64,000 nucleotides of DNA. It comes from a virus. This document shows, one piece after another, positions 2,630-63,926 of the stretch. Position numbers and translations under genes: made by a program. The notes under the pieces were generated by a model that searched no databases, was not told the DNA's origin, and saw only the letters and a program-made list of their open reading frames with translations. The stretch's first letter is position 1. Every line of letters begins with the position of its first letter. The stretch is from IMG/VR virus record IMGVR_UViG_3300036770_008166, positions 51,247 through 115,246 of that record; one strand, given 5' to 3'.

Positions 2630-3711
2630 TTCTGTCTCCTCAGGGCCATTTCCTGTATTTGCCGATGCTGATAATCTCGATCACTCCAGTGATACGGATA
2701 CTCGTTTGACGCATCATTGGTACGGATAGCCAACACGTCTGTGTAGTTAGTCAACATTTGCACTATGGTTGCATGATCCTGGGTACCAAATGACGCTACA
2801 AGATCCACCTGGCCGATCTTGGGATGACCAATGGTGAGTTCTGGATCACCTGGATCAAAACCATTGTGACTCAGCCAAGATCTAAAGTTTTGCAGCTGGG
2901 TTTGGCGCCACTCAAATTTTTGTGGATTCCGGCCCCATTCGATATCAAAGTCACCCGCGGCTTCGGTCTGTCCACGCATGGTGGTACTGACCAATTCAGC
3001 AACGTTCCGTCCCTCATCACAGAAGACTTCCCAATGGTGTTTTCCAACAGCTTTGTTGACGCCAACATATACTGCTCCAGTATCGCGATTTAGGGTGCCA
3101 ATACCGAACAGTTCAAAATCCTGTGAGTCAAGCGCAAATCTGGGTGCTTCTAGCCAACACATCAGTTGGCTAGGGCATAACCAATCTGGAGCTTCGCGCT
3201 GTTTTCGATAGCTCAGTGCCCAGGATTCAAATTCGTGACACAACAAATTCAACTGTCTGATATGCCATCTGGTGTCATCGTTGGCACGTAGATAAAATTT
3301 GCTGGGATTGCCACTGATACCTTGTAGATCTTCGAAATATCGATGCAACCAGTTAAGACGATCTTGTATGACGTTTCTACCGCAGGCACGTCCGTACCTG
3401 GGATCATCACTTATGGTGTTGGCCAGTAAAAATTCATCATCAATGCGATACCCTATGTCAGCTTGGTTGATGGCCTGGATGCTCTGATTGATCCGGTCAC
3501 AGATGAACGCACCATTTCTATCACTGTCTGGGAACCCCATGAAGCAAAAATTTTTTTCAAGATGGAAATTATCTCGCAACAAATGATTCAAAGCCTGCAA
3601 CCATTTGCCGGCCAGAGAATTATCTGCAACATCTATGAAAATCGACAGTGGCACCGACTGCCTATTACGCAGCACCATTTCGATTCTATCTAATGTTTTG
3701 CCACCATCCAT
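2626..3711 (-). CDS. Unknown protein of the radical SAM operon
   Basis: I do not recognise this roughly 361-residue protein. I chose the ATG at 3709-3711, which has an AGGA box five bases upstream and overlaps the preceding radical SAM gene by 26 bases; a longer reading from 3759 would overlap by 74. The protein is soluble and rich in Trp, Asp and Arg, with scattered cysteines but no CxxxCxxC. The segment SIFIDVADNSLAGKW looks like an early beta-strand/loop of an alpha/beta fold. Its place at the end of a run of twitch radical SAM genes suggests a partner or substrate role, but this is only context. Confidence 0.75.
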   Translation of the reverse strand: MDGGKTLDRIEMVLRNRQSVPLSIFIDVADNSLAGKWLQALNHLLRDNFHLEKNFCFMGFPDSDRNGAFICDRINQSIQAINQADIGYRIDDEFLLANTISDDPRYGRACGRNVIQDRLNWLHRYFEDLQGISGNPSKFYLRANDDTRWHIRQLNLLCHEFESWALSYRKQREAPDWLCPSQLMCWLEAPRFALDSQDFELFGIGTLNRDTGAVYVGVNKAVGKHHWEVFCDEGRNVAELVSTTMRGQTEAAGDFDIEWGRNPQKFEWRQTQLQNFRSWLSHNGFDPGDPELTIGHPKIGQVDLVASFGTQDHATIVQMLTNYTDVLAIRTNDASNEYPYHWSDRDYQHRQIQEMALRRQK

Positions 3712-7444: not shown

Positions 7445-8771
7445 ACCATTCTTTCAGTCGGGGAAACGTAGACGTGAAATCTTTGTCTCTGCGATTGTCA
7501 TACTGCTGATAGAACTCCCTGAAATCATTATGCAGTTTCGGCATTTCAAACGCGTCCGAATGTGGAGTTTTCACAGTGTCAAGATAGTCTATCAAACGTT
7601 GCACATGATTGATCTCGTGCTCCTGTAATACAGGATCATCGCGATTGAGCTCCAGCCAGGTTATGAGATTGATACGATGACGATCTCGTATCTCTCTTGG
7701 CAGCACCAACGGGCTCTGGAAGCTGGGAAAACGCAGGATGTTCAAGGTAAAGTTCACCCGATTCCGGCCGTAGATTTTTTTCAACAGCAACAGGTGGTCG
7801 AGATATTCGGGGAGGCTTTCCAAACACAGCGCATTGATGGTACACATGCTGTGTACTGCCCGCACAGGTGAATCCTCTGCCATGAGGATGTTCTGCACAT
7901 TGTGATTCCAGGTCTGCCAATCCAGACCATCTCGGATGTATTCGGCCTGATCACCTACAGCTTCATTAGAGGTGTAGATATCTAGTTCGATTCCCTGGCA
8001 GCTGTCCAGGAGCCTCTGCACTGTGCTCCAATCCAGGCTGAGATTACTATTGATAGCAAGACGCGTCTTGCTTCGGCCAGGATTCGCGCGGAACCAGTCC
8101 AGGAGCTGCCAGGTGTAGCCAGACATGAGAGGTTCCCCACCGGTGATACGCAGTTCCTCCAGCGTGCGATGAAGATCGGTTTCCCACCACGCAAAGAAAG
8201 CATCCACGTACGGATTAGGTTCTCCAAAACGAAAAAGTTGAGCACTATCATGACTGTGAGTGAAATGGTTTCGGCCATCAGAAATGAGATTCTGGTAGGG
8301 TCCACGGTTCCTGATGTCCTTAACCCATGTGCTAGAAAAAGCAGGATTACAGTAAGAGCAAGCGAGCTGGCAAGTGCGATCAAAGCTGATCTCCAGGGTC
8401 TTGAGATCGATATCCTGATCTGCTGGCGTGCCAGCAGCCTCGCGTAGGTCATGTATTTCATAGATCTTTGATTTATATATGCGATCGCTCACAGCATCGC
8501 GGCCCATGTCTTCGATCTTCCAGCAGTATTCGCAACCAGCAGGTCTACGCCCGGCCTGCATGTCCGCTCGATCCTGTTTCTTTTGTGGTGTATTGTGCAG
8601 CAGTCGAGGATTGGTTTTCACTGCTTCGAGGTCCACCTGGTGTGCCGGTGGATGATGGCAGCTGGTGGTCTGACCAGAACCCAGCCAGATAGTGGCATTG
8701 TACCATTTGGCTGCGCAGAAACTGGCGGAGATAGGATCCAGCACCTGCTGGCGGAATTCAATGTCTTGCAT
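7431..8771 (-). CDS. Radical SAM protein, variant AKW/HHPP N-terminal region
   Basis: The 446-residue protein has the radical SAM motif CQLACSYC at C134/C138/C141 and GGEP near 240. Its N-terminal cysteine region deviates from the CxxPW paralogs: C19 is in CAAKW, the usual double cysteine is a single C38 followed by HHPP, and C80/C83 (CEYC) completes it. The protein at 9857 has the same variant, so the two form a subfamily. Histidines next to C38 could replace a missing ligand (inference). ATG at 8769-8771 overlaps the preceding gene by 14 bases. Confidence 0.9.
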   Translation of the reverse strand: MQDIEFRQQVLDPISASFCAAKWYNATIWLGSGQTTSCHHPPAHQVDLEAVKTNPRLLHNTPQKKQDRADMQAGRRPAGCEYCWKIEDMGRDAVSDRIYKSKIYEIHDLREAAGTPADQDIDLKTLEISFDRTCQLACSYCNPAFSSTWVKDIRNRGPYQNLISDGRNHFTHSHDSAQLFRFGEPNPYVDAFFAWWETDLHRTLEELRITGGEPLMSGYTWQLLDWFRANPGRSKTRLAINSNLSLDWSTVQRLLDSCQGIELDIYTSNEAVGDQAEYIRDGLDWQTWNHNVQNILMAEDSPVRAVHSMCTINALCLESLPEYLDHLLLLKKIYGRNRVNFTLNILRFPSFQSPLVLPREIRDRHRINLITWLELNRDDPVLQEHEINHVQRLIDYLDTVKTPHSDAFEMPKLHNDFREFYQQYDNRRDKDFTSTFPRLKEWYDSL

Positions 8772-9867
8772 CTAGGAAATCAATGATTGTTTGGGGTAAA
8801 ATTGCGCGCTCTCTTTGATTGTGATAGCGCAAGTGCTGTTGGTTATATTTACAGGTTTCCTCAGTAGCGTCCAAAAAACTGGCAGCACCATTGGACACGA
8901 TGTCTTTGATCACTTTCACAATGTCTTGCATACGCTGCTCTGGATCTGTGACAGAATCGAAACTTTCGTCAATCAGATGTCCAAATGTGCGAAATCCTGC
9001 ACGGTGCAGATCGCGATAATATCCGGCATTGGCCGCTACCACAAAGGGATGCGCCATAATCATGGGTTTCCAGATTTTTTCGGTGCGAAATGTGTAAGGA
9101 TAATCGTAAATGGTTTCCGTGACTACACTGAAATAGGTATCGGTATAAGCCTGCGGATTGATTATGGCATCACCCCATGTGTTATTGAACAGTTGGTGCT
9201 TGACAAATCCACCATCTAGTAGATTTGCAGTGAGATTAGGGCGAGCTCGTTCTATTTCGTATTCAGGCGGGAGCAAACGTATTGGTTCGAGTTTTGTAGT
9301 TTGCAATGTGCTGGTAAATTGCATCTCTACACGACTGCCAAGATTGGTCCACAGCGCTCGCTGCAAGAGTCCCTGATCTCGTAGCACATCGATGAGATAT
9401 TTCCTGTGTGGGCGCAAACGACCATTAAGAAACAGGAAATCATAAGGTCGGCCATGGCCGTGACGAACATCCTGTTGTGCAGCCGCGAGATTTTCTGTGT
9501 ACTCACAAATATTGCTGAAATAACAATCGGTTTTGATGTAGTCAAATTCGCATGCCATGTCTCCCGATGTTAACAGCAAGATCTGCCCCGCACGCACCAG
9601 ATTTTCTATCCTTAGTCGCTGGAGTTGCAAAAGCACAGTTTCGCTTCCTTCGGCAGGATTACAAAACACGATGCGTCCTGGATATCGCTCTGCGAGCTCA
9701 CACACTCGATACCAATTTTCTTTGATTTGTACGCGACCTAGTATGGTCACGCTATCAGCATCGAATTCCAGTTCAGAAAACCGCCAAAATTCAACATCGG
9801 CGTAGTGTTTGAGTAAATCGTAGACTTCACTCCATTGATCTAACACAATGCGATGATTACCTAGCAT
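8758..9867 (-). CDS. Glycosyltransferase-like protein, TEK-motif family (copy 1)
   Basis: This roughly 369-residue protein is one of four in the operon sharing a C-terminal block: RTEKIWKPMIMAHPFVV, then a loop, then AGFRTF and an acidic stretch. Acid-rich S/TEK-W motifs followed by a glycine or proline loop occur in the donor-binding half of fucosyltransferase-like (GT10) enzymes, so a sugar-transfer role is plausible but not proven. The ATG at 9865-9867 was preferred over 9915 because it reduces overlap with the preceding radical SAM gene to 11 bases. It lies between the two AKW-type radical SAM genes, which suggests that they act on the same product. No signal peptide or membrane segment is seen. 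Confidence 0.75.
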   Translation of the reverse strand: MLGNHRIVLDQWSEVYDLLKHYADVEFWRFSELEFDADSVTILGRVQIKENWYRVCELAERYPGRIVFCNPAEGSETVLLQLQRLRIENLVRAGQILLLTSGDMACEFDYIKTDCYFSNICEYTENLAAAQQDVRHGHGRPYDFLFLNGRLRPHRKYLIDVLRDQGLLQRALWTNLGSRVEMQFTSTLQTTKLEPIRLLPPEYEIERARPNLTANLLDGGFVKHQLFNNTWGDAIINPQAYTDTYFSVVTETIYDYPYTFRTEKIWKPMIMAHPFVVAANAGYYRDLHRAGFRTFGHLIDESFDSVTDPEQRMQDIVKVIKDIVSNGAASFLDATEETCKYNQQHLRYHNQRERAILPQTIIDFLDARH

Positions 9868-11260
9868 GATACTCACATTGTTGCCACCAGTCGCGCATTT
9901 CTGGAAACGTGGCAAGAAAATCTGTATTACGACGCCTATCGTGCTCAGAGAAAAATCTGTAGAAATCGGCTCGGCACCGTTTGAGATATTGTGCGTCTAG
10001 TTTTGCTCCATCTCTCATCCAGGCAATGTCTCGTTCTAATCTTTGTATCTCGAAATCTTTGAATCCTTGAAACGGGGCGTCAGGCCGTTCATGTTGACGT
10101 ATCATCCAAGCCCAAAGGTGGTCCAGCCGATCTGCATAACTTTCTGGCAAGATCTGTAGGCTCTGCCATTCGGGCTTCCTCAGTACCGGAGTATCAAACC
10201 ACACACGTTGATATGTTTGATTATAGGTGCGGCGGAGTCCTAGTATACCGGCAAACAGTTTGTCTAGGCTGGTCACAGATAGATTGTTCATGGTCACGAT
10301 AAAGGTCAGGCTATTTCTGTATGGTATCTCATTGAGAAACTGATTCACTCGATCCCATAAAAGTTCAAAATCCAAACCGTGCCGCATATACTCGGCTTGC
10401 AGGGCCCATCCGTCGATGCTGACATACTGCATAAAATGTTCAAGAATCGGTTGGTCACACAATCGCTTCACGTAGTCTTTGTAGCGTTGCCACAATTTCT
10501 CTTCCACAGAGAAATTGCTGGTCACACAGAGATGCAGATCAAGTTTAGGATTGGCCAGCACATAATCAAACACACGGTAGGTATTGCGATCCATGAGTGG
10601 TTCTCCGCCTGTCATGCGAAAGTGTGTTAGTTCAGGATACAGGTCGGGCCACCAATCCCAGAAAGCTTCGACCCAGGGATTATGTTCACGAGCAGGAATA
10701 GGACGGCGGTCGCCTAGAAAATGATCTGGATGATTGTGCGGGGTGCTGGTAGGATAAGCACCTAGGCGTTGAATTTCGTCTTGCCAGGTGGATGAAAATT
10801 GTGGACTACAATAGCTGCACCGGAGATTGCAAACATGATTGAAGTTGACTTCTACATAGCTGGGTGTCACATCATTCTCATCTCCGGTGAAAGCAATGAT
10901 CCGATCAAAATCTCGACTCGCCCAGGGTTCTCCTGATCTGTAATGACGATCACTCATCTGTCCAAGATCTTCCATGTTCCAACAGTATTGGCATTCAGCA
11001 GGACGCTGGCCCTCTAGCATCATCTTTCGCTGTAGTTTCTTGTGTGTGGTATTGTGCAAAGCGCTGGGACGACGCCCGATTTCGGTCACGGGTATACGGT
11101 GCAGAGGCGGATGATAGCAGGAATTGTTAAGACCGGTTGGGAGATGGAGACTGACCTGCTTCCATTTGGCTAAACATAACGCAGATCCTAGTTTCTCTTT
11201 CATTACATGTGCAGCAGATAGAAAATCACTGGATTTTGTTGGCGAAGCAAGATCAGACAT
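9857..11260 (-). CDS. Radical SAM protein, variant AKW/HHPP-like N-terminal region (copy 2)
   Basis: This 467-residue enzyme is the longest radical SAM protein here. Its N-terminal region has C29 in CLAKW, C48 followed by YHPP, a conserved LHNT segment, and C90/C93 (CQYC). The SAM cluster motif CNLRCSYC is at C144/C148/C151 and GGEP near 240. It shares the CxxKW, HPP and LHNT blocks with the protein at 7431, so the two arose by duplication. It starts with ATG overlapping the preceding gene by 8 bases. Substrate unknown. Confidence 0.9.
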   Translation of the reverse strand: MSDLASPTKSSDFLSAAHVMKEKLGSALCLAKWKQVSLHLPTGLNNSCYHPPLHRIPVTEIGRRPSALHNTTHKKLQRKMMLEGQRPAECQYCWNMEDLGQMSDRHYRSGEPWASRDFDRIIAFTGDENDVTPSYVEVNFNHVCNLRCSYCSPQFSSTWQDEIQRLGAYPTSTPHNHPDHFLGDRRPIPAREHNPWVEAFWDWWPDLYPELTHFRMTGGEPLMDRNTYRVFDYVLANPKLDLHLCVTSNFSVEEKLWQRYKDYVKRLCDQPILEHFMQYVSIDGWALQAEYMRHGLDFELLWDRVNQFLNEIPYRNSLTFIVTMNNLSVTSLDKLFAGILGLRRTYNQTYQRVWFDTPVLRKPEWQSLQILPESYADRLDHLWAWMIRQHERPDAPFQGFKDFEIQRLERDIAWMRDGAKLDAQYLKRCRADFYRFFSEHDRRRNTDFLATFPEMRDWWQQCEYHAR

Positions 11261-15342: not shown

Positions 15343-16295
15343 GTACCTATTTCTAAGATCTGTAAGTTGTAGTCAAAGTTCTTGGCTACCATGTAGTTAT
15401 GTTCCAACTGGAATCGCATGCACATATACAATTCTTCCAGTTCTTCACGAGATTTCGAGGCCAACCAATCTATCAAATTTAGGATTTTGATATATCTGTC
15501 GCCTTCTGCAAATCCATCATAGTCTTCGTTCCAAAATTCATTGAATGTATAAAATCCCAACTGTCTTACATATTCTAGATAATTTTCCGAAGCCATCGCT
15601 ATAAACGGTTTTTTCATCAGAATAGGTCGCACCAATTTTTCGGTAGGAAAAAACGTTCGCCCCTTGATATTGGGTTCGCTAATGATGTCAACAAAAATGT
15701 TGGCATACAATTGTAAAAGACCTTTATCGTAGGTAAAGAGATGTCCGTGAGGTTGATAACCTAGATTTTTTGGTTCGTGCATGTCGATCCAGTTAGCTAG
15801 ATAGGTCAAGCTGTCGGGGTCATATACAAACAATTTATTGACTTCGCATAGCGCACGCTGATCTGGATCGCGGAAATCTACAGGAAATATTATTTCAGAA
15901 TCGGCTCTATATTGATTGCACAGATAGGCTGCAATGCCTAATCTGTTGGCCGTTGGGCGGCCAAAAAAAGCTCCAAATATCTTGGTTTGATTCCATACAC
16001 CCGACGTGTTGAGATCGTATTTTTCAATGTCCAGAAAAAATCTACCTACATTGACTTTTGATATACCATATCGATCATGCGCTTCCAATTGATTATGTGT
16101 CATGATTTGCACTGAGGTGAAGTTGAATTTATCAAGTATGTCATAGAATCCTGACGCTCTAAGACAGTGTGCTTCTGGGTTGACTATGATACAGATATCA
16201 CTGCCTTGATTGTCATTCAAGAACGCAATCAGATCTGGGATGTTCCACAGCATATCATTGGTTACTGTGACAGTGAATTCTTTGTGATCTACCAC
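15339..16295 (-). CDS. Glycosyltransferase-like protein, TEK-motif family (copy 4)
   Basis: A 318-residue protein with FPTEKLVRPILMKKPFIAM near residue 220, then YVRQLGFYTFNEFWNEDYDG. It is the shortest family member in the operon and closest to copy 3. The middle contains IISEPNIKG, matching IVTEPNVSG in copy 3 just before the TEK motif, so SEPN/TEPN is a second family signature. Copy 1 has VVTET at the same place. The role in sugar transfer is inferred from motif style and context. Confidence 0.75.
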   Translation of the reverse strand: MVDHKEFTVTVTNDMLWNIPDLIAFLNDNQGSDICIIVNPEAHCLRASGFYDILDKFNFTSVQIMTHNQLEAHDRYGISKVNVGRFFLDIEKYDLNTSGVWNQTKIFGAFFGRPTANRLGIAAYLCNQYRADSEIIFPVDFRDPDQRALCEVNKLFVYDPDSLTYLANWIDMHEPKNLGYQPHGHLFTYDKGLLQLYANIFVDIISEPNIKGRTFFPTEKLVRPILMKKPFIAMASENYLEYVRQLGFYTFNEFWNEDYDGFAEGDRYIKILNLIDWLASKSREELEELYMCMRFQLEHNYMVAKNFDYNLQILEIGT

Positions 16296-17215
16296 CCCTC
16301 TTGTCTCCGTATCACATCAATCTCTCTTACCATGATACCTTGATTTTGCCAGTTTGAGCGATAGTGGCGCTTGAAAAAAGCACTCTGTTCGGCCTCCAAC
16401 ATGGCTACTGGAAGGTCCAGCTGATCATGCAATTCGACGCCGATCTTGCCGGCCATGACTCTGGGGTCCGACGTTTCCACCGTGGTCCATAGAGCCTGCA
16501 AAGAATCAAAATCCTGCACTTCACGATGATCCCAATTGGTCAACATGGTCATGTAGGTACCTTGACGAGCTCCGGCTATGGCCCAGATGCCATGCTCCAC
16601 GTCAGTACCTACGTTATGCCATATGGTGAGATGATCAAGATTGCGTTGGTGCACGCGGTCTCGGAATTCTGCTGCAGAAGGTCGTCGACCTTGGTCTAGG
16701 CACATCTTGACACCCTCTCGGAATCCGGCACGCCAGGCCTGGAAGGCGGATCCATTGGGATAAGTCACTGACCAACAGTCGTGCATGGCCCAATAAAGCG
16801 GATCGAAACAGAATTCTACCTGTGTGGCATCCGATCCGTCCGTGTTTTCGTGGGTGGTCATGTTGGCAACAAAGGTACGAGTCCATGAGCTGAGGCCGCC
16901 ATTGCCATACATGAGGCCATTGATGGTGTTGTAAGCTCTCCAACGCAGCACAGCAGATTCCCAGGTCACATCTGGAAACTCTAGCACCTGATTGAAAAAC
17001 ACCGGATCTGGCAGGTTGTCCCCATCAATCAAGATAAAACGCTCTGTGGCACTGGCCTCGCCGGCTGCCTTGTGTGCTGCATCTGATCCTTTGATGCCAT
17101 GCACTCTCTGAGCCCAAGGTACCATGTTCCGGATGGTGATCCAGAACTCTTCACACTGAGGCTCATCATAGGTCAGATAGATACAGTCTAAATCTGCCAC
17201 GTCAATCTTGGTCAT
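16289..17215 (-). CDS. GT-A-like glycosyltransferase candidate with DGD motif
   Basis: A 308-residue protein whose first 100 residues look like a GT-A nucleotide-sugar binding fold: CIYLTYDEPQ at the first strand and FILIDGDNLPDP near 60-72, where DGD fits the metal-binding DxD motif. YGNGGLSSW follows. The C-terminal half is helical and rich in Trp and His. It resembles predicted glycosyltransferases common in marine T4-like phages. Its ATG overlaps the stop of the upstream small gene by 14 bases. The sugar donor and acceptor are unknown. Confidence 0.7.
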   Translation of the reverse strand: MTKIDVADLDCIYLTYDEPQCEEFWITIRNMVPWAQRVHGIKGSDAAHKAAGEASATERFILIDGDNLPDPVFFNQVLEFPDVTWESAVLRWRAYNTINGLMYGNGGLSSWTRTFVANMTTHENTDGSDATQVEFCFDPLYWAMHDCWSVTYPNGSAFQAWRAGFREGVKMCLDQGRRPSAAEFRDRVHQRNLDHLTIWHNVGTDVEHGIWAIAGARQGTYMTMLTNWDHREVQDFDSLQALWTTVETSDPRVMAGKIGVELHDQLDLPVAMLEAEQSAFFKRHYRSNWQNQGIMVREIDVIRRQEGW

Positions 17216-17537
17216 AGGTTTTCATGCTCCACTTTTGTACGTCGCCATGCGATCTCACGATCATGACATCGTAAACATCACAACTTGTGCCCTGTTCGCT
17301 TGGCACCAGTTTGGCGGGTTGTAGCCAAGGATGATACTGGTGCAGCCGTCCGTCTCTTACTCGAATCCATTTGCTGCCACGTGCATAGGTGGCTTGATCG
17401 ATGTCTATGTATGTACCAGGCAGATCCTCCATGCTGTAGCATATGAGTCGACCACGGTCATCGTGATACAATCGATAAAACACAGGCTGAGCCGTGGGTG
17501 CTGCATGCAGGATCTGCCAAAATTCTTCGGGGGTCAT
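17202..17537 (-). CDS. Small conserved-looking unknown protein (about 111 residues)
   Basis: The start is placed at ATG 17535-17537, giving MTPEEFWQIL, because this ATG overlaps the upstream stop exactly as ATGA; a longer frame begins at 17576. The protein has a helical N terminus, then beta-rich sequence with LICYSMEDLPGTYIDID and ends near KTYDQD. I do not recognise a domain. Its setting between two glycosyltransferase candidates is the only hint of function. Confidence 0.7.
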   Translation of the reverse strand: MTPEEFWQILHAAPTAQPVFYRLYHDDRGRLICYSMEDLPGTYIDIDQATYARGSKWIRVRDGRLHQYHPWLQPAKLVPSEQGTSCDVYDVMIVRSHGDVQKWSMKTYDQD

Positions 17538-18298
17538 GGTAGCCAGTTCTTTTCGTGGTAGTGAAAAGCGCCCCATTGCACCACGGTATCAATGCGCAGT
17601 CGTCCGTTATCATGTTCCCATACCAGATTTTTTGACCAAGGTCCCACGGTACCAGCAGTGCGAGGTTTCATATGCACTATCTGCGGATACGAAGCAAAAG
17701 GCATGGTCACACGTTCCGGACCCATGACAGCTGCAGCTATGGCGTAGACCAGGTCGGTGCTGGCCTGATCTTCCGCGAATCGCAGGAGTTGTTTTACCTG
17801 TGGCCAAGTCTGGAATATCTGCCGTACCAGATCAAAAAATTCTTTGGCTGTGGCAGACAGGCGCCAATAGGTCACAGCATTGTACACATCTGGCAAGTGG
17901 TTTTCACGGAAACATCTACGATACGGAGAATTCGTTACTAGCTGATCGTGCCAATCTCGGCATCCTGTGCTGATCACTAGATCACGATGCCGGAGCATGT
18001 TCCACCAATGATCTATGGCGCTGACAATCAGCATGTCAGCTTCCAGCTTGATGGTCTCGCGGAAAGGTGTGTGTCGGAATACAGCAGCATCATTGGCATA
18101 GGCCGTGGCGGCTGGATCTATCAGGCGCACATGATCAAATTCAGGCGCCGACACTATCTGGTCTGTGATCAGACAGGTCCGGGCTGCTGGGTGCCACGAT
18201 TTCAAACTGGCAAACAGGCGCTGTGCCATGGACACATAGTCCGCGGTGTCGGTGTTCACTGCCACACACACATATCCCTGCTCTTCAATGGGCCGCAA
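17534..18298 (-). CDS. GT-A/GT8-like glycosyltransferase candidate, TTG start
   Basis: Read from TTG at 18296-18298, which has GGGAGA five bases upstream and overlaps the preceding gene by 14 bases, the protein is about 254 residues. It parallels the next upstream gene at 18285: an N-terminal strand (YVCVAVNTDTADYVSMA versus VIFAVGAGALDYVAMA), then RTCLITDQ, and EADMLIV in the place of the DAD metal motif. This EAD variant may weaken metal binding. The two are probably tandem duplicates. GT8-like enzymes transfer sugars from nucleotide sugars. A longer frame to 18439 is unlikely since it would overlap 155 bases of coding sequence. Confidence 0.72.
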   Translation of the reverse strand: MRPIEEQGYVCVAVNTDTADYVSMAQRLFASLKSWHPAARTCLITDQIVSAPEFDHVRLIDPAATAYANDAAVFRHTPFRETIKLEADMLIVSAIDHWWNMLRHRDLVISTGCRDWHDQLVTNSPYRRCFRENHLPDVYNAVTYWRLSATAKEFFDLVRQIFQTWPQVKQLLRFAEDQASTDLVYAIAAAVMGPERVTMPFASYPQIVHMKPRTAGTVGPWSKNLVWEHDNGRLRIDTVVQWGAFHYHEKNWLP

Positions 18299-19070
18299 CG
18301 ATGTCTCCCAGCTGGCGCTTGCACATGGCATGGAAATCTTGATCCTGCAGCGAGCATCGGCGCGGACGGTCCGCTGGACCATATTGCACAATAAATTGGT
18401 CCTGATCTTGTTGCACGAGTTTGTGTTCAGGCAACACATTTATCATGGCACACACTCGAGGCATCACAGGATCTACATGCCCGTTGACCAAAGGCAGTGC
18501 CATGCTGAGTGCATAATCATTTCGATACAGGGGCGAGTCTACGTGGAAAAGATCTCGATAGTGCTGCCAGTTATCGCGTATCATGCGCATGCTGTCAAAT
18601 ATGAATCGAGCTTGATTGTCACGATTGAACGCTACCACCGTGGCCCAGTATTGGGGGTGGTGATGCCGGCCAAATGTGTTCCAACTGTGAGAACCACCTG
18701 CAGCGATGGCATGTCGGAAACACCACAATCTGTCATGATCCATGATGACTCTCAGTGCATCGCTGGCGATAACATAGTCAGCATCCAACAACAGTGTACG
18801 ATCATAAGGAGAAAGATCAAACGCATCACAGCGATCACGATTGTGCCAGGGCACTGTATGACCTAGATCTTCGAACCATCTGTCACGATGGCCCGACGGC
18901 GCTGCTATCTTGATTACCCGATCAAATACTGCGTCATTGACATCTTGATCGGTAATCAGCGTGGTAGGCAGATCCAAGTGCCTGAGGATGCGCTGTGCGC
19001 TCCAGGCCGCCATGGCCACATAGTCCAAGGCGCCGGCTCCTACAGCGAAAATCACTGCGCCCTGTGTCAT
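18285..19070 (-). CDS. GT-A/GT8-like glycosyltransferase candidate
   Basis: A 261-residue protein with GT-A features: strand AVIFAVGAGALDYVAM, LPTTLITDQ, and the metal-binding DxD motif inside TLLLDADYVIAS near residues 93-104. A C-terminal VLPEHKLV segment may close the active site. It is the first gene of the accessory operon after the virion module; its ATG overlaps the stop of the conserved 101-residue gene at 19067. Its tandem relative lies directly downstream. Confidence 0.75.
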   Translation of the reverse strand: MTQGAVIFAVGAGALDYVAMAAWSAQRILRHLDLPTTLITDQDVNDAVFDRVIKIAAPSGHRDRWFEDLGHTVPWHNRDRCDAFDLSPYDRTLLLDADYVIASDALRVIMDHDRLWCFRHAIAAGGSHSWNTFGRHHHPQYWATVVAFNRDNQARFIFDSMRMIRDNWQHYRDLFHVDSPLYRNDYALSMALPLVNGHVDPVMPRVCAMINVLPEHKLVQQDQDQFIVQYGPADRPRRCSLQDQDFHAMCKRQLGDIVAAH

Positions 19071-50665: not shown

Positions 50666-51556
50666 TTGACCATTCCATCATCGACTGCCAAAGTCAACTA
50701 TCTAAACAATCGCGACATCCTCAAAGAAATACACCTCAGCAAAAACACCTACTGCACATTCCTGGACCCTGTGCAGGATCATCAGTACGACATAATCTTG
50801 CCTTCAGTGTCAAAGATCAATCAGCGCACCATCGCTGAAGCACGCAGGAACCGTGCTGCGCGTCTCACTCGCGAAACCGGCGAGGCCGTTAACGAAAAAC
50901 GTATTCCACACACCGATCTGGTGTTCCGTATAACCTGCTGGGATCACATACCGCAGGCGCCCAAAAAACAGCCCAAAGTGGCCGCCAAAAAACGTACCTT
51001 GGACGTCATCCTAGAGTTTGAAGATGCGGAAGATGACATCGCTGATCCTGCCCTAGACGAGCCCATGCTGGATCCTGTGCATGTGCGCGTAAACTTTCCT
51101 CCGTTCTGGCACTATCGCTTGGATGACAACAAGGTACCCTATGTGGTGGGCAAGAGTCATTGGCAAGGCGATCTTGAGTCGGGATCATACAGCCGTGATC
51201 ATGGCAACATGACTCGCCGACTGGCCCAGATGTTCATGAAACTGTGCGAACGCTATGCTACCAGATCCAACTGGCGCGGCTATACCTACAACGAAGAAAT
51301 GCGAGGGCAGGCGCTGTTGCAACTGAGCCAGATTGGTCTGCAGTTTGACGAGTCAAAGAGCCAGAATCCTTTTGCCTACTACACAGCAGCCATCACTAAC
51401 TCATTCACCCGTATACTCAACATCGAAAAGAAAAATCAAAACATCCGAGATGACATCCTGGAGATGAACGGTCTCAATCCTTCATGGACACGGCAATATT
51501 CACAGAGCGCGGTCATGATGTCCGGACCGGTCGTGAACGTCACGGAAGATCAGTAA
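50666..51556 (+). CDS. 55: Late transcription sigma factor gp55
   Basis: A 296-residue homologue of T4 gp55, the sigma factor that directs host RNA polymerase to late TATAAATA promoters. The diagnostic core is near residues 175-275: GNMTRRLAQMFMKLCERYA, then NWRGYTYNEEMRGQALLQL and NPFAYYTAAITNSFTRILNIEKKNQNIRDD, corresponding to sigma region 2. T4 gp55 has 185 residues, so the N-terminal part is extended, including an acidic segment (LEFEDAEDDIADP) of unknown role. The start is TTG at 50666-50668 with GGGAGA six bases upstream. It is the first gene of the plus-strand operon. Confidence 0.93.
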   Translation: MTIPSSTAKVNYLNNRDILKEIHLSKNTYCTFLDPVQDHQYDIILPSVSKINQRTIAEARRNRAARLTRETGEAVNEKRIPHTDLVFRITCWDHIPQAPKKQPKVAAKKRTLDVILEFEDAEDDIADPALDEPMLDPVHVRVNFPPFWHYRLDDNKVPYVVGKSHWQGDLESGSYSRDHGNMTRRLAQMFMKLCERYATRSNWRGYTYNEEMRGQALLQLSQIGLQFDESKSQNPFAYYTAAITNSFTRILNIEKKNQNIRDDILEMNGLNPSWTRQYSQSAVMMSGPVVNVTEDQ

Positions 51557-51565: not shown

Positions 51566-52582
51566 ATGGCCAATTTATTCCGCAAGGCAGCAGTATTCAC
51601 CGACATCCACTTTGGACTGAAAAGCAACAGCCTCTTGCACAATCAGGACTGTGAACGATTTATTGATTGGTTCATCGCCACTGCCAAGGAGCAAGGTTGC
51701 GAGACCGGCATGTTCCTGGGAGACTGGAGCCATCATAGAGCGTCTATCAACATGCAGACTCTTCAGTACAGTCTCAGAGCCCTAGAGAAACTGTCTGCAG
51801 CATTTGATCGATTCTATTTCATTCCCGGCAATCATGATCTCTATTATCGCGATCGGCGCGACATCTACAGCACTGAGTGGGCACGACACATTCCAAACAT
51901 CGTGATTGTCAACGACTGGTTTCAAGAAGGTGATGTGATCATCGCACCTTGGCTGGTAGGCGATGATCACAAGCGCATCGCAAAAATGTCCAGCAAATAC
52001 ATGTTCGGGCACTTTGAATTACCGCACTTCAAGATGAATGCCATGGTGGAGATGCCGGATCACGGTGAGATCCAGACTGAGCATTTTGGTGGCTTTGACC
52101 GGGTGTTCTCGGGACATTTCCATCTCAGGCAGAACAAGCGCAACATCAACTATATTGGCAATGCGTTCCCACACAACTTTGCTGATGCCGGCGACGACCG
52201 TCGTGGTGCCATGATACTAAAGTGGGGATCAGAGCCCGAATACCATGCTTGGCCCGATCAACCTCTTTATAACGTCTGGGATCTTAGCCATGTGATGGAT
52301 CATGCCGAAAGCATACTGCGGCCCAACATGCATGTGAGGGTGCAGCTGGATATCGAGATAAGTTACGAAGAAGCCAACTACATCAAAGAAACTTACATCG
52401 CCAAGCACGGGCTGAGAGAAATGGCCTTGATACCCAACAAGCGATCGGTTCTAGAAGAAGACATGGCACCCGGGGATGTTCGATTTGAGTCAGTGGACCA
52501 AATTGTGACGGATCAGATCATCAAAATTGAGTCTGAATTCTACGATCCTAAACTGCTGTTAGAAATATATCAGACACTATGA
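51566..52582 (+). CDS. 47: Recombination nuclease subunit gp47 (Mre11/SbcD-like)
   Basis: A 338-residue metallophosphoesterase. Catalytic motifs in order: FTDIHFG (D13, H15), LGDWSHH, PGNHD and GHFHLRQ. Together with gp46 it forms the double-strand-break processing nuclease used for recombination-dependent replication. Length equals T4 gp47 (339). It starts nine bases after gp55 stops, and its stop overlaps the start of the SDR gene (ATGA). In T4 gp47 and gp46 are separated by one or two small genes; here they are separated by an SDR and a radical SAM gene. Confidence 0.95.
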   Translation: MANLFRKAAVFTDIHFGLKSNSLLHNQDCERFIDWFIATAKEQGCETGMFLGDWSHHRASINMQTLQYSLRALEKLSAAFDRFYFIPGNHDLYYRDRRDIYSTEWARHIPNIVIVNDWFQEGDVIIAPWLVGDDHKRIAKMSSKYMFGHFELPHFKMNAMVEMPDHGEIQTEHFGGFDRVFSGHFHLRQNKRNINYIGNAFPHNFADAGDDRRGAMILKWGSEPEYHAWPDQPLYNVWDLSHVMDHAESILRPNMHVRVQLDIEISYEEANYIKETYIAKHGLREMALIPNKRSVLEEDMAPGDVRFESVDQIVTDQIIKIESEFYDPKLLLEIYQTL

Positions 52583-53034
52583 GCACAGTGGCCTTGACTG
52601 GACACACACGCGGGTTGGGATTTCTAATCAACAACGCACTGACGTCGCGCGATCATATCATAGTAGGATTTAGCAGATCTACTGGATGCGATATCAGAGA
52701 TTACACCCAGGTTGGAAGAATGATTGAAACCGTAAAAAACTTTGATTGGTTTATCAATTGTGCTCATCCAGATTATTGTCAATCTCAAATAGCCTATCGG
52801 CTGATGAGTAATGGATTTCGCGGAAAAATTTTGAACATTGGAAGCCCTGCGGTGCACGATCCACCTTTGTGGACTGATCTATCGTTGTTAGAGTACTTAA
52901 CACAGAAAACTGCTCTTTATCATGCACATCAGGTCTTAGTCAAGCTATATCCAGATCAATTATTGATCTGGGAACCCGATCATACAGATGATCAAAAATA
53001 CGTAATCGAAAATTTAACCCGCATCGGATTATGA
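52579..53034 (+). CDS. Minimal short-chain dehydrogenase (151 residues)
   Basis: A very short SDR-fold protein. The NAD-binding TGxxxGxG is TGHTRGLG at 7-14, DWFINCAH follows at strand beta-4, NIGSP supplies the catalytic serine region and YLTQK the catalytic YxxxK. Common SDR enzymes have about 250 residues, so the substrate-binding C-terminal portion is reduced or missing. Both ends overlap neighbours as ATGA. This gene and the next are more AT-rich than gp47 and gp46 on either side, suggesting a later insertion. It may work with the radical SAM protein encoded directly downstream (inference). Confidence 0.8.
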   Translation: MSTVALTGHTRGLGFLINNALTSRDHIIVGFSRSTGCDIRDYTQVGRMIETVKNFDWFINCAHPDYCQSQIAYRLMSNGFRGKILNIGSPAVHDPPLWTDLSLLEYLTQKTALYHAHQVLVKLYPDQLLIWEPDHTDDQKYVIENLTRIGL

Positions 53035-54233
53035 CACCGGAAGACTTTACCAAACATCCTGCCTTGTGTGCTTTACCTTGGCACGGCATTTACATCAATC
53101 CCGACGGCGCTGTGAAAAACTGCGCTATCAGCGCACAGACTCTTGGTAATATACACGATTCACAGTTGCCCGATATCATGAACAATGTCCATAATCGTGA
53201 GATCCGACAAGACATGTTGTCAAAGATCAAGCATGCTCGATGCGATAGCTGTTATCAAGTCGAACATAATTCAGGCAGTGACAATGAAAACGAAAGTAAT
53301 CGATCTTGGTATAAAAAAGTCACGTTAAAGCACGAGTCAGATTTCGATTTTTTTGATCGAGTTGACAATTTTGTGCCTGTGGTCTTGGATTTGAGATGGC
53401 GTAACACCTGCAATCAGGCATGCGTGTATTGCGGCCCAGATCTCAGCAGCCTTTGGGCCGAGAAGGTCAATCACCCGTTTAGAATCAACGACCAGATTTT
53501 GACACAGTCTAAAGAATGGATTTTTTCTAATTTAAAATCTGTAAAACATGTTTATCTTGCAGGGGGTGAACCGCTGTTGATCAAAGAAAATCAACGATTA
53601 CTGGAAAAATTATTAGAAGAAGTTCCAGATGTAGACATACGCATCAATACCAATCTTAGTAGCATCGACAATCCAATTTTCCGGTTATTAAAAAAATTTG
53701 CGAATGTCAAATGGACAGTAAGTGTAGATTCTAAAGAAGAACTATTTGAATACATGCGCTGGCCAGGTCACTGGAAAACATTTCTCTACAATCTTAAGGT
53801 ACTGCAGAGCATCGTGGGGGATCAAATCAACTTTAACATGGTCTGGTGTATACTCAATGACATAGACATCATTGACACAATAGATTGTCTTATTGATCAA
53901 GGTTACCATGAAAACATGTTTGTAGTCCAATGTCTAACAGATCCTTCGCCTTTGAGCATACTTCATTTACCGATATCACAAAAGAAAGACTTACAGCAAC
54001 AAATACTAGATCGCCAAAATCGTTGCAATCAAGATTGGTGGCTTTACAAAAGCCTTTGTTCAATGTATAATTTCTTAGATCGAGATTTGAAAGAACCTAG
54101 AAACATCTCGTTCCAGGGGCAACAACCTCTGTCCAGTGGGCTACAAGGAACTTTTGAATATCTGAAATACATAGACAAGATACAGAATAAAGACAGTCGC
54201 AATATTTTTCCAAGATTATACCAACATCAATGA
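53031..54233 (+). CDS. Twitch-domain radical SAM protein inserted between gp47 and gp46
   Basis: A 400-residue protein with the same architecture as the operon proteins at 3686-7444. The N-terminal cysteine set is C13 (CALPW), a single C31 (NCA) and C71/C74 (CDSC). The SAM cluster motif CNQACVYC is at C127/C131/C134 and AGGEPLL near 178. Only one cysteine stands where paralogs have a pair, so the auxiliary cluster may lack one ligand. The start and stop overlap the neighbours as ATGA, coupling its translation to gp47 and gp46. The gene is AT-rich. Confidence 0.92.
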   Translation: MTPEDFTKHPALCALPWHGIYINPDGAVKNCAISAQTLGNIHDSQLPDIMNNVHNREIRQDMLSKIKHARCDSCYQVEHNSGSDNENESNRSWYKKVTLKHESDFDFFDRVDNFVPVVLDLRWRNTCNQACVYCGPDLSSLWAEKVNHPFRINDQILTQSKEWIFSNLKSVKHVYLAGGEPLLIKENQRLLEKLLEEVPDVDIRINTNLSSIDNPIFRLLKKFANVKWTVSVDSKEELFEYMRWPGHWKTFLYNLKVLQSIVGDQINFNMVWCILNDIDIIDTIDCLIDQGYHENMFVVQCLTDPSPLSILHLPISQKKDLQQQILDRQNRCNQDWWLYKSLCSMYNFLDRDLKEPRNISFQGQQPLSSGLQGTFEYLKYIDKIQNKDSRNIFPRLYQHQ

Positions 54234-55993
54234 TACAGATCCAAGATCTCACAGTCCGAAACTTCATGAGCGTGGGCAATGCTACACAGGCTATCAACTT
54301 TGATCGCAGAGATCTCACGCTGGTGTTGGGCGAGAATCTCGATCTCGGCGGAGACGGATCTAGGAACGGTACAGGCAAAACCACCATCATCAATGCTCTC
54401 AGTTACGCGTTGTATGGTCAAGCACTCACAAACATCCGCCGAGACAATCTCATCAACAAGACCAACGCCAAGAACATGTTGGTCAGTCTGGACTTCTCCG
54501 TGAATGGGCGAGATTACCGGGTAGAGCGAGGTCGCAAGCCCAATGTGTTGCGTCTCTATGTCAACAACGAAGAACAACAGGCCATAGACGATGCACAGGG
54601 CGACAGCCGCGAAACACAGGAGGCCATAGAATCTGTGCTGGGCATGACACACGATATGTTCCGACATATCCTGGCGTTAAACACCTACACTGAACCGTTC
54701 TTGAGCCTCAAGGCCAATGACCAACGTGCTATCATTGAGCAACTGCTGGGCATCACACTACTAAGTGAACGTGCTGAGAAGATCAAAGAACTCAACCGTG
54801 CTACCAAAGATGCTATCAGCCAAGAAGAGATGCGCATCCGTGCTGTGCAGGAAGCCAACAAACGCATCGAAGAGCAGATCGCCAGTCTCGAAAAGCGTCG
54901 CACCTTGTGGCTCAACAAGCAGGCCGAAGATGTCAAAGGATTTGCAGATGCTATCTCTGCATTGGAACACATCGACATCGAGGCCGAAGTGCAAGCGCAC
55001 AGAGATCTCGAACTCTACCACGGACAAAAGAAGCAGATCGACGAGCATCACAAGTGGATACGGCAGATCGATCAAGACAACTCAAAATTAGAAAAAGACA
55101 GTGCCAAACTCAAACGCGACATCGATGCGCTAAAAGAACATCGATGCCATGCCTGTGGTCAAGAACTGCACGATTCAAAGCAAGACGAGATCCTGGCAGA
55201 GAAGCAAAAGAATCTTCAAGAGATTGGCCTGCAACTCTTGGCCAACGACACACAGCGGCATGAGCACCTCAATGAGATCGACGATCTTGGCGAATTGGGT
55301 ACTGCACCCACGGTGTTCTATGACGATCTCGAGCAGGCGCTCAACCACAAGAACAGCCTAGATGGATTGCGCCGAGACCTTGCTAATCGTTCTGCGGAAA
55401 CAGATCCTTATACCGAACAGATTGATGACATGCGTGGGCAAGCCCTCCAGGAAGTCACATACGACACTGTCAACGAACTTACCCGTGTGTTCGAGCATCA
55501 GGACTTCTTATTGAAACTGTTGACCAACAAAGATTCATTCGTTCGCAAGAAGATCATCGAACAGAACTTGAGTTATCTCAATCAGCGTCTCACACACTAT
55601 CTAGACAGGATCGGATTGCCACATCAGGTGATCTTCCAAAACGATCTCACGGTGGAAATTACCGAGTTGGGTAGAGATCTAGACTTTGATAATCTTAGCA
55701 GAGGTGAACGCAATAGATTGATACTATCAATGAGCTGGGCGTTCCGCGATGTATGGGAGAGCCTGTATCATCCTATCAATGTATTGTTTATCGACGAATT
55801 GGTAGATTCTGGGATGGATACACAGGGTGTAGAAAACAGTCTAGCCTTGTTGAAGAAAATGAGCAGGGAACGCAACAAGAGCATTTGGCTTGTTTCGCAC
55901 AGAGATGAGCTGGCTGGGCGTGTAGAAAACATCCTGCGTGTGGTCAAAGAGAATGGATTCACTTCATATAATACGGATATCGATATCGCGTGA
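54230..55993 (+). CDS. 46: Recombination nuclease subunit gp46 (Rad50/SbcC-like)
   Basis: A 587-residue SMC-like ATPase. Walker A is near residues 43-52 (GSRNGTGKTT), a long coiled coil follows, the zinc hook is CHAC near 305-308, the ABC signature is LSRGER near 490 and Walker B is LFIDELVDSG near 520. It pairs with gp47 to resect DNA ends. T4 gp46 has 560 residues. Start ATG overlaps the radical SAM stop; the stop overlaps the GTG start of the next gene (GTGA). Confidence 0.95.
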   Translation: MIQIQDLTVRNFMSVGNATQAINFDRRDLTLVLGENLDLGGDGSRNGTGKTTIINALSYALYGQALTNIRRDNLINKTNAKNMLVSLDFSVNGRDYRVERGRKPNVLRLYVNNEEQQAIDDAQGDSRETQEAIESVLGMTHDMFRHILALNTYTEPFLSLKANDQRAIIEQLLGITLLSERAEKIKELNRATKDAISQEEMRIRAVQEANKRIEEQIASLEKRRTLWLNKQAEDVKGFADAISALEHIDIEAEVQAHRDLELYHGQKKQIDEHHKWIRQIDQDNSKLEKDSAKLKRDIDALKEHRCHACGQELHDSKQDEILAEKQKNLQEIGLQLLANDTQRHEHLNEIDDLGELGTAPTVFYDDLEQALNHKNSLDGLRRDLANRSAETDPYTEQIDDMRGQALQEVTYDTVNELTRVFEHQDFLLKLLTNKDSFVRKKIIEQNLSYLNQRLTHYLDRIGLPHQVIFQNDLTVEITELGRDLDFDNLSRGERNRLILSMSWAFRDVWESLYHPINVLFIDELVDSGMDTQGVENSLALLKKMSRERNKSIWLVSHRDELAGRVENILRVVKENGFTSYNTDIDIA

Positions 55994-57018
55994 TAGTCTG
56001 GGACCATTGGCACATCGAACCATCAAGCATCTGTACACTGAAATGTCCTAGATGCCCTAGAGCCGAAGTACCCGAGAGCCTGCTGAATCGACAACTGACT
56101 CTAAAATTTTTTCAAGATCAGATTGGAGCCGACGTCGTGAGTAAAATACGCAAGATCACGTTTTGTGGCAACGATGGTGATCCCATCTACTGTAAAGAAT
56201 TACTGGAAATATGTGTTTGGCTCAAGACCGTGAATCCCGATATCCATCTCGTCATAATCACCAATGGCAGTTATAAAACAACCGAATGGTGGCGTGCGTT
56301 GGGTCGCGTGCTGGATCATCGAGACGAAGTCAACTGGAGTATAGACGGTTGGGATCAAACCAGTAATGAACAGTATCGTGCGAACTGCAATTGGGATTCG
56401 ACCCTGTCAGGCATGCAAGCATTCTGCAAAGTCAATCAGTCTACCTACCGCGTATGGGCCGCTATCGCTTTCCGCTTCAATCAAGATCGATTAGGGGATA
56501 TGCAGGTCATGGCACAAGCATTAGGCATGGATCTGTTCCAGATCACTAAGAGCACCAAGTTTGGTAGCCACTATCCTGAGACCTACGGAGTATCGGATCC
56601 TTTGTGCCCAGATCGTGCGGATCTGGTGAGTTCTACCCATAGATTTGAAAGAGTACTGGAGCCCATAACTGATCGTGCTCGCCCAGGAGAACTGCTCAAA
56701 GAAATTTTCTGGAGCCGAGCACAAGATCTAGATAAACACAAGCAGTATTCAGGTATCTGTCTCATAGGCAACAAAGGTGTATTTCTCAACAGTCAAGGCG
56801 AATTCTATCCCTGTTGTTGGACAGCCAATCGCTACCCTCACAATAGCCGATGGCATGAACAGGCCAAAGAACGTTTCAATCTTTGGTACAGGAATTTCTC
56901 AGACATAATAGCAGATAATTTTTGGCGGACAGAATTTTTGGCGTTTAACAGTCAAGAGTGTGCAACGAAATGCACATCCGACAGATTAAAAGATAGAGAG
57001 CATGTAACAGAATGGTAA
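55990..57018 (+). CDS. Radical SAM protein with GNDGDP motif, downstream of gp46
   Basis: A 342-residue radical SAM enzyme with CTLKCPRC at C15/C19/C22, close to the N terminus. The usual GGEP is replaced by CGNDGDP near residue 55. The C terminus has further cysteines: GICL, a PCCW segment near 271 and CATKC near 320, a SPASM-like set. It therefore differs from the twitch paralogs and is nearer to peptide- or sugar-modifying SPASM enzymes in layout. The GTG start overlaps the gp46 stop (GTGA). The presence of two radical SAM genes in the gp47/gp46 operon suggests a coordinated role during DNA replication or the middle phase. Confidence 0.88.
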   Translation: MIVWDHWHIEPSSICTLKCPRCPRAEVPESLLNRQLTLKFFQDQIGADVVSKIRKITFCGNDGDPIYCKELLEICVWLKTVNPDIHLVIITNGSYKTTEWWRALGRVLDHRDEVNWSIDGWDQTSNEQYRANCNWDSTLSGMQAFCKVNQSTYRVWAAIAFRFNQDRLGDMQVMAQALGMDLFQITKSTKFGSHYPETYGVSDPLCPDRADLVSSTHRFERVLEPITDRARPGELLKEIFWSRAQDLDKHKQYSGICLIGNKGVFLNSQGEFYPCCWTANRYPHNSRWHEQAKERFNLWYRNFSDIIADNFWRTEFLAFNSQECATKCTSDRLKDREHVTEW

Positions 57019-57027: not shown

Positions 57028-57468
57028 ATGACATGGCTGTACGAATCCAACGAAATCACAGCGATACCGGAAGAATATGCCGGGTTTGTGTATCTCATAA
57101 CCAATACACAGACTGGCAGGATGTACATTGGCAAAAAATTATCAAAGTTTAGCAAGACCACATACCGCACAGAGAAACTCAAGAACGGCAAGAAACGACG
57201 CAGAAAAATCAAGGGCAAGATCGAAAGTGACTGGCAGACCTACTATGGATCCAGTCCAGAACTCACCAGAGACGTACAAGCATTAGGCACAGAAAATTTC
57301 CGACGCGAGATATTGTATTACTGCCGAAGCAAGGCTGAATGCAGTTATATAGAGGCTCGAGAACAATTCCGCCGCAGGGTACTTGAATCAGACGAATACT
57401 ACAATGGTCACATACAGGTTCGAGTGCATGGCTCACACATCAAAGGCAAACTAGGCACTAACGGCTAA
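57028..57468 (+). CDS. GIY-YIG-type nuclease-like protein (146 residues)
   Basis: The segment GFVYLITNTQTGRMYIGKK (residues 19-37) matches the GIY-YIG motif block of Seg-type endonucleases, followed by a basic KNGKKRRRKIKGK stretch and the conserved tyrosine/asparagine helix DWQTYYGSS. A similar small protein occurs near gp46 in many marine T4-like phages, where it is stable rather than mobile, so a repair or genome-degradation role is as likely as homing. It is the last gene of the plus-strand operon. Confidence 0.8.
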   Translation: MTWLYESNEITAIPEEYAGFVYLITNTQTGRMYIGKKLSKFSKTTYRTEKLKNGKKRRRKIKGKIESDWQTYYGSSPELTRDVQALGTENFRREILYYCRSKAECSYIEAREQFRRRVLESDEYYNGHIQVRVHGSHIKGKLGTNG

Positions 57469-63410: not shown

Positions 63411-63926
63411 ATGGCAGAACACGATTCTCGCATATTCTATGTGTATCAATATGTAAATGAAGGCGGTCAACCGTACTACATTGGAAAAGGATCTGGCAGA
63501 CGGTTACATCGACTGCACACACGAACCCAATTACCTCCTGTTGAACGCAGGGTAATTATTCAGGACGGATTAACAAACGATGAGGCAAAAAAACTTGAGG
63601 GCGAGTTAATTTCGAAGTATAAAAGAAAAATTGATGGCGGTCTGTTAGATAATATCAAAATCAATCAATGGGCGTGCGCAGTTGGTTGGAAGCATTCTGA
63701 AGAAACCAAAAGAAAGATTTCCGAAGGCAATAAAGGAAAAAAACGAACCCCTGAGCAGTTAAAGAATTATAAAGGAACTGTGACTGCAGAGCACAGAGAA
63801 AAAGTCAGACTAGCCAATCTTGGAAGACCGTACGATCCAGTTCGAGCCAAAAAAATTTCTGACACATTAAAAAAATATTTTGCCGCAAAAAAAGCAGCAA
63901 AATTGATGGAGCAGGACAATGGCTAA
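63411..63926 (+). CDS. GIY-YIG homing endonuclease with NUMOD3 repeats
   Basis: A 171-residue Seg-like endonuclease. The catalytic part begins IFYVYQYV...PYYIGKGSGRR (GIY-YIG), with a helix LEGELISKYKRK. Two NUMOD3-type DNA-binding repeats follow: HSEETKRKISEGNKGKK and TAEHREKVRLANLGRP. This is the standard layout of mobile free-standing endonucleases. It is much more AT-rich than the tape measure gene before it, consistent with recent transfer. Its 3' end overlaps the next gene's start by 8 bases. Confidence 0.9.
   Translation: MAEHDSRIFYVYQYVNEGGQPYYIGKGSGRRLHRLHTRTQLPPVERRVIIQDGLTNDEAKKLEGELISKYKRKIDGGLLDNIKINQWACAVGWKHSEETKRKISEGNKGKKRTPEQLKNYKGTVTAEHREKVRLANLGRPYDPVRAKKISDTLKKYFAAKKAAKLMEQDNG

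What the first reader, a model, noticed from the sequence alone, without database searches (positions are those of the whole stretch)
52579..57018. SDR and two radical SAM genes built into the gp47-gp46 replication operon
Between and after the conserved gp47 and gp46 genes lie a minimal SDR, a twitch radical SAM protein and a second, unlike radical SAM protein. All junctions are exact ATGA or GTGA overlaps, so translation is coupled. The two inserted genes between gp47 and gp46 are clearly more AT-rich than the flanks. The SDR-radical SAM pair may be an independent functional unit expressed with replication functions.
Basis: partly seen in the sequence, partly recalled or inferred. Interest (0 to 1): 0.75.

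Follow-up and report, generated by a model that had tools for sequence, protein, structure and literature searches.

The report
Swappable SDR–radical-SAM cassette in phage operon
A large T4-like phage carries a two-enzyme set (a small short-chain dehydrogenase and a radical SAM enzyme) in a junction between two essential DNA-recombination genes; relatives swap the contents of that junction very quickly, and they keep these two enzyme types together, in one branch even fused into one protein, so the pair looks like a real working unit of unknown product.

Summary
In detail: gp47 | SDR | N-twitch radical SAM (rSAM1) | gp46 | rSAM2, joined by exact 4-bp ATGA/ATGA/ATGA/GTGA overlaps, with SDR and rSAM1 AT-rich (GC3 0.39/0.40 versus 0.57 in gp47 and gp46). 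It is not a one-off. In about 120 related loci the gp47–gp46 junction is a fast-exchange cargo slot: empty in 36, filled in 85, against 3/48 and 4/53 at two control junctions. Contents match in only 35% of pairs whose gp46 is 95–100% identical. The SDR–rSAM1 pair sits at this junction in nine other phages, and in 28 further distinct loci beside uvsX, in the gp32–uvsX junction, a second recombination operon of the same jumbo-phage clade. With rSAM1 as bait, 36 of 39 assessable genes have the SDR upstream; with the SDR as bait, about 80% lie next to a radical SAM gene. A sister SDR is always beside, or fused to, another radical SAM family (22 fused, 17 adjacent). So SDR plus radical SAM is a functional unit. 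Most likely chemistry: radical oxidation or dehydration by rSAM1, then NAD(P)H reduction by the SDR; the substrate, probably a sugar, is inferred. rSAM2 belongs to a separate slot after gp46.

The parts
50666..51556 (+). gp55-like late sigma factor, first gene of the operon (TTG start uncertain)
   Evidence: phrog_12791 sigma factor for late transcription 7.9e-77
51566..52582 (+). gp47 (SbcD/Mre11-like nuclease subunit), upstream border of slot A
   Evidence: PF00149 30.7 bits, phrog_100 7.5e-57
52579..52582 (+). ATGA overlap gp47/SDR, same register as the empty-site gp47/gp46 ATGA of relatives
   Evidence: the first cargo gene overlaps gp47 by 4 bp in 51 filled loci
52579..53034 (+). minimal SDR, 151 aa: TGxxxGxG, Asn60, YxxxK (Tyr106, Lys110), no C-terminal substrate lobe
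   Evidence: A4 alignment of 25; AF2 pLDDT 93.8; Foldseek best match 3ucf small-chain dehydrogenase, TM 0.63-0.78
53031..53034 (+). ATGA overlap SDR/rSAM1
53031..54233 (+). rSAM1, N-terminal-twitch radical SAM enzyme: C127xxxC131xxC134 plus twitch cysteines C13, C31, C71, C74
   Evidence: NF033640 246.7 bits; all seven Cys invariant in 27 sequences; twitch aligns with BtrN including its four Cys; AF2 pLDDT 89.9
54230..54233 (+). ATGA overlap rSAM1/gp46
54230..55993 (+). gp46 (SbcC/Rad50-like ATPase subunit), border between slots A and B
   Evidence: phrog_77 5.3e-97; 50% identical to Pseudomonas phage PA5oct gp46
55990..57018 (+). rSAM2, radical SAM with C-terminal SPASM-like cysteines (C15xxxC19xxC22; C257, C275, C276, C324, C328 invariant), GTGA overlap with gp46; occupant of slot B
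   Evidence: PF04055; A8 alignment of 13; orthologues downstream of gp46 in many loci
57028..57468 (+). SegE-like GIY-YIG protein, downstream border of slot B, conserved in the clade
   Evidence: PF19835 116 bits; found downstream of gp46 in most loci

Best explanation
The gp47-gp46 junction of this jumbo T4-like phage clade is a fast-exchange cargo slot inside a recombination operon. Cargo genes enter seamlessly at the ATGA stop/start overlap, so the flanking genes stay intact and translation probably stays coupled. In this phage the slot holds a two-enzyme cassette, SDR plus N-twitch radical SAM (rSAM1), that is a genuine functional unit: the two genes are kept adjacent in fixed order and diverge together. 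SHOWN by sequence: the slot, its turnover, the pairing, fusions of the sister pair, intact catalytic motifs in both enzymes. INFERRED: rSAM1 uses a 5'-deoxyadenosyl radical and a BtrN-type four-cysteine auxiliary cluster to oxidise (or dehydrate) a carbinol carbon of a small polyhydroxylated substrate, and the SDR reduces the resulting ketone with NAD(P)H, giving net epimerisation or deoxygenation, comparable in logic to AprD4/AprD3. INFERRED with less support: the substrate is a sugar or glycan precursor used to alter the host surface or a virion glycan.
For: Slot: 85/121 loci filled against 3/48 and 4/53 at control junctions; same content in only 35% of pairs at gp46 95-100% identity, 18% at 90-95%, about 10% below about 80%; cargo AT-rich in 81/84; gp47/first-cargo spacing is exactly -4 in 51 loci. 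Unit: rSAM1-baited, SDR upstream in 36/39; SDR-baited, SDRa next to a radical SAM gene in 49/61 and SDRc in 44/44; 22 fused and 17 adjacent rSAMc-SDRc; subfamily-specific pairing in 86 distinct SDR genes; Mantel r = 0.905. Two operons: gp47-gp46 in ten phages including this one and gp32-uvsX in 28 distinct loci, 20 with both flanks seen. Chemistry: conserved motifs and folds; BtrN cysteine match, BtrN oxidises an inosamine alcohol to a ketone and its cluster has four Cys ligands where MoaA's has three (PMC9012708); AprD4/AprD3 precedent (PMC5461906). Sugar: cargo of the same slot includes amidinotransferase-like, sulfotransferase, DegT and epimerase proteins; the genome also carries two epimerases, a DegT aminotransferase, a cytidylyltransferase and a carbamoyltransferase.
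Against: No substrate, product or host is known. BtrN-like twitch is a weak profile match (0.00014 for the whole sequence, 0.013 for the stretch) and the domain order is permuted. Foldseek matches for rSAM1 have TM of only about 0.4 and include peptide maturases (SkfB, SuiB), so a peptide or protein substrate is not excluded. About 16-20% of SDRa genes have no radical SAM neighbour. SGNH-like labels were read by eye or rest on DUF6071.
Confidence: 0.62

Rival explanations
1. The cassette makes a modified nucleotide or DNA base (hypermodification) and is placed in recombination/replication operons for that reason.
For: The pair sits in two different recombination operons. Phage thymidine hypermodification pathways with radical SAM enzymes are known (own knowledge, not tested here). 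rSAM1 and rSAM2 show weak similarity to viperin-type nucleotide enzymes.
Against: Neighbouring cargo in the same slots looks like sugar or small-molecule chemistry; the slot content turns over far faster than a DNA-modification pathway should; viperin membership fails its cut-off (28 of 180 bits).
Confidence: 0.15
2. The pair modifies a peptide or virion protein, as twitch/SPASM maturases do.
For: Best fold matches are SkfB and SuiB; a conserved array of five twitch radical SAM genes lies beside the tail-fibre genes.
Against: No small precursor-peptide gene lies in the cassette; an SDR partner is not typical of peptide maturases (own knowledge).
Confidence: 0.15
3. Chance neighbours: radical SAM genes are so common in these slots that any SDR ends up beside one.
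For: CL0, the radical SAM cluster, makes up 151 of 375 cargo genes.
Against: Subfamily-specific pairing and fixed order (SDRa followed by rSAM1 in 38 of 40; SDRc only with rSAMc), 22 fused ORFs, and the same pair in a second operon.
Confidence: 0.03
4. The slot is filled by a homing mechanism driven by the SegE-like GIY-YIG gene just downstream, and the cargo is carried along without selection.
For: SegE-like gene at the border in most loci; GIY-YIG-like genes also occur in slot U (read by eye); turnover is high. This explains exchange, not function, and is compatible with the best explanation.
Against: The cargo keeps intact catalytic residues and the pair is maintained, so it is under selection.
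Confidence: 0.2

Closest known systems
AprD4/AprD3 (apramycin pathway)
   Same: Radical SAM enzyme with a dedicated NADPH-dependent reductase partner, joint C3 deoxygenation (PMC5461906)
   Different: No homology test against AprD4/AprD3 was made; here the genes are phage cargo, a sister pair is fused, and the substrate is unknown
BtrN (2-deoxy-scyllo-inosamine dehydrogenase)
   Same: Twitch domain with four conserved Cys aligned with all four BtrN twitch Cys
   Different: Twitch is N-terminal here and C-terminal in BtrN (permutation); similarity outside the twitch is low
NCBIfam NF033640 twitch domain-containing radical SAM proteins
   Same: rSAM1 is a clear member (246.7 bits, cut-off 170)
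   Different: Family function is not known; the SDR partnership and junction slot are added here
Plastic regions of T4-like phages (cyanophage hot spots; host recognition cluster of pelagimyophages)
   Different: Here the slot is inside the gp47-gp46 overlap of an operon and swaps at very short distances; not found described in the held papers

Membership tests
NF033640 N_Twi_rSAM | Score above the curated cut-off | tested here: met
   246.7 bits, cut-off 170, residues 11-398
NF033640 N_Twi_rSAM | CxxxCxxC and N-terminal twitch cysteines | tested here: met
   C13, C31, C71, C74, C127, C131, C134 invariant in 27 sequences
Classical SDR | TGxxxGxG, Asn and YxxxK, Rossmann fold | tested here: met
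Classical SDR | Pfam adh_short gathering score | tested here: not met
   15.1 bits, cut-off 26.6; the protein is short
BtrN-type twitch dehydrogenase | Four-Cys auxiliary cluster | tested here: met
   alignment of four Cys; metal not tested
BtrN-type twitch dehydrogenase | Domain order: radical SAM core then twitch | tested here: not met
   twitch is N-terminal
AprD4/AprD3-type radical SAM plus reductase pair | Radical SAM gene kept with a reductase gene | tested here: met
AprD4/AprD3-type radical SAM plus reductase pair | Dehydration of a diol followed by ketone reduction | not testable with these tools
   needs enzymes and substrate
Viperin (pVip / NF038283) | Score above the curated cut-off | tested here: not met
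   28.2 bits, cut-off 180; PADLOC pVip hit covers the radical SAM core only

The most novel reading that the evidence does not exclude
A two-enzyme radical SAM/SDR redox-editing cassette, not found in cellular genomes by the scans made here, that phages exchange among translationally coupled junctions of their recombination operons (gp47-gp46, gp32-uvsX), alongside a conserved array of five twitch radical SAM enzymes, and that makes a phage-specific sugar or nucleotide of unknown structure.
Probability: 0.35. Interest if true: 0.8.

Novelty: new variant of a known kind. Interest (0 to 1): 0.6.

Why it matters
It turns a one-genome curiosity into a testable system: a defined slot with empty and filled relatives, two matched enzyme families, and a natural fusion protein ready for expression. 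Finding the product would say what radical chemistry large phages bring to infection, and the slot gives a clean natural case of very fast gene exchange inside a core operon without breaking it.

Tried and rejected
One-off insertion: rejected, pair found in nine other phages at this site. Random neighbours: rejected by subfamily-specific pairing and fusions. Acquisition of the pair from a sampled bacterium: a genome scan with rSAM1 found no relative; a scan with the fusion found three weak or partial loci, none with gp46 or another phage marker in the stretch tested, so the source is open. Viperin: below cut-off. Named phages: no match to SDR or rSAM1 by tblastn; megablast of the region found nothing. 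Literature searches for radical SAM with gp46/gp47 and for SDR-radical SAM fusions in phages gave nothing relevant. PDB search for cargo family CL3 gave nothing. In the first SDR labelling, five loci (L181, L193, L214, L216, L223) were left out of the Mantel test because of uncertain starts or labels.

Full report
What is there. The window is part of a 115,246-base IMG/VR virus record (window = 51247-115246). The finding is exact: gp47 51566-52582, SDR 52579-53034, rSAM1 53031-54233, gp46 54230-55993, rSAM2 55990-57018, all overlapping by four bases. A gp55-like sigma gene precedes and a SegE-like GIY-YIG gene follows. GC3 of SDR and rSAM1 is 0.39 and 0.40, of gp47 and gp46 0.57. The closest named gp46 proteins are those of Pseudomonas phage PA5oct and allied phages, Sinorhizobium phage Phosso and Agrobacterium phage Atu_ph07, all jumbo phages. 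In PA5oct gp47 and gp46 touch directly; Phosso and Atu_ph07 carry other, unrelated genes there.

The junction is a cargo slot. I used gp46, rSAM1, SDR and rSAM2 as separate baits in IMG/VR and compared the intervals. After removing duplicates, slot A (gp47-gp46) is empty in 36 of 121 loci and filled in 85, with one to five genes and up to 4345 bp; slot B (gp46-SegE) is filled in 97 of 111; slot U (sigma-gp47) in 30 of 98. Two control junctions a few kb away have inserts in 3 of 48 and 4 of 53 loci. The set mixes baits, so these are frequencies in this sample, not in nature. Empty sites keep the ATGA overlap of gp47 and gp46. In filled sites the first cargo gene overlaps gp47 by exactly four bases in 51 loci and the last overlaps gp46 by four in 34. 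Cargo is lower in GC than core genes in 81 of 84 slot A loci (mean -5.9 points) and 80 of 92 slot B loci.

Turnover. Slot A content is the same in 35% of pairs with gp46 95-100% identical, in 18% at 90-95%, and in about 10% below about 80%. The nearest relatives of this phage carry other cargo or none: L013 (gp46 95%) a CL1 pair, L015 (89%) three other genes, L016, L017 and L099 (83%) an empty junction. L174 (84%) carries the same SDR-rSAM1 pair. Cargo families include radical SAM proteins (151 of 375 genes in all slots), an amidinotransferase-like family (matches AGAT, SxtG and inosamine-phosphate amidinotransferase in the PDB), sulfotransferase, DegT fragments, AMP-binding protein with a TctC partner, DUF6071 proteins and several unknown families.

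The pair. None of the 80 gp46-baited loci carries it, so it is a rare cargo. An alignment of four rSAM1 proteins found 60 loci. Complete gp47-SDR-rSAM1-gp46 order, or the same with one further gene beside gp47, is seen in the window and nine other phages (L093, L095, L096, L174, L176, L178, L179, L191, L201), with partial copies in others. Of 45 distinct rSAM1 genes, 36 of 39 with a readable upstream gene have the SDR there. A second setting was unexpected: 28 of 32 distinct other loci lie beside uvsX, 20 of them with gp32 also visible, and gp32, UvsX and UvsY were identified by PHROGs. Six of ten large records of the gp46 clade also hold this UvsX, and one 230-kb record holds both the gp47-gp46 and the gp32-uvsX slot (L137 and L200), so both junctions belong to one phage clade.

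Sister pairs and fusions. A different radical SAM family, rSAMc, sits in slot B. All 39 assessable genes have an SDR: 22 as one open reading frame (rSAM first, SDR last, 501-595 aa) and 17 as neighbours. Two more SDR groups precede rSAM2-like genes. In 86 distinct SDR genes the pairing is specific by subfamily. Because radical SAM genes are common in these slots, adjacency alone is weak evidence; subfamily specificity, fixed order and fusion are the strong part. To remove bait bias I searched with the SDRs alone: SDRa lies beside a radical SAM gene in 49 of 61 assessable cases, with two more one gene away, and SDRc in 44 of 44. So a minority of SDRa genes stand alone. SDR and rSAM1 distances correlate (Mantel r = 0.905, 25 pairs). 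In the eight gp47-gp46 cases with a complete gp46, rSAM1 also correlates with gp46 (r = 0.77), so the pair partly follows phage descent.

Chemistry. The SDR keeps TGxxxGxG, Asn60, Tyr106 and Lys110, is predicted with pLDDT 93.8 and matches small-chain dehydrogenases. rSAM1 keeps seven invariant cysteines in 27 proteins and is predicted with pLDDT 89.9. Its N-terminal twitch aligns with the C-terminal twitch of BtrN, with all four cysteines in register. BtrN performs a two-electron oxidation of an inosamine alcohol and its cluster has four cysteine ligands, unlike MoaA's three (PMC9012708). AprD4/AprD3 shows that a radical SAM enzyme and an NADPH-dependent reductase can work as one deoxygenation step (PMC5461906). 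I therefore think the pair oxidises or dehydrates a carbinol carbon and reduces the ketone, most likely on a sugar-like molecule. That is inference; fold matches also include peptide maturases, and the BtrN match is weak.

rSAM2. Its identity to relatives falls along with that of gp46 (for example gp46 82/rSAM2 80, 76/71, 65/58, 58/49), and it is often the last gene before SegE. It behaves as a frequently inherited occupant of slot B. In the window it has no SDR neighbour, while related proteins at 34-40% identity do.

Verdict. Hot spots and radical SAM cassettes in T4-like phages are known (PMC3037559, PMC7029224), so I rate it a new variant of a known kind, interest 0.6.

Noticed in passing
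window 3686-11260 (minus strand), with 909-2393 and 16289-19070: Array of five twitch radical SAM genes (with one gene between two of them) with a carbamoyltransferase beside the tail-fibre genes. Seven of seven stretches taken from large relatives (L284-L290) keep it, mostly 44-76% identical per protein.
   Followed up: partly
L032, L073, L079, L083 slot A: Recurrent pair of an AMP-binding protein and a TctC-type periplasmic receptor as cargo between gp47 and gp46.
   Followed up: no
L013, L065, L063, L108 slot A (cluster CL1): Unknown pair of about 180 aa proteins, found as two genes in some loci and as one ORF of about 380 aa in others; slot A only.
   Followed up: no
L007:5742-7751 and L009:10101-11129 (same genome): B12-binding radical SAM protein; and a protein that looks by eye like the amidinotransferase-like cargo family (no Pfam match).
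   Followed up: no
L205:2152-2718 and equivalents: A roughly 188-aa protein of unknown family and a second twitch radical SAM gene precede SDR-rSAM1 in most gp32-uvsX loci, forming a four-gene set.
   Followed up: partly
L311, L342, L345, L356: SDRa genes without a radical SAM neighbour; in some the upstream gene is an unidentified protein of about 190 aa.
   Followed up: no
window 63411-63926: AT-rich gene (GC 0.40) that reads like a GIY-YIG endonuclease; not searched.
   Followed up: no
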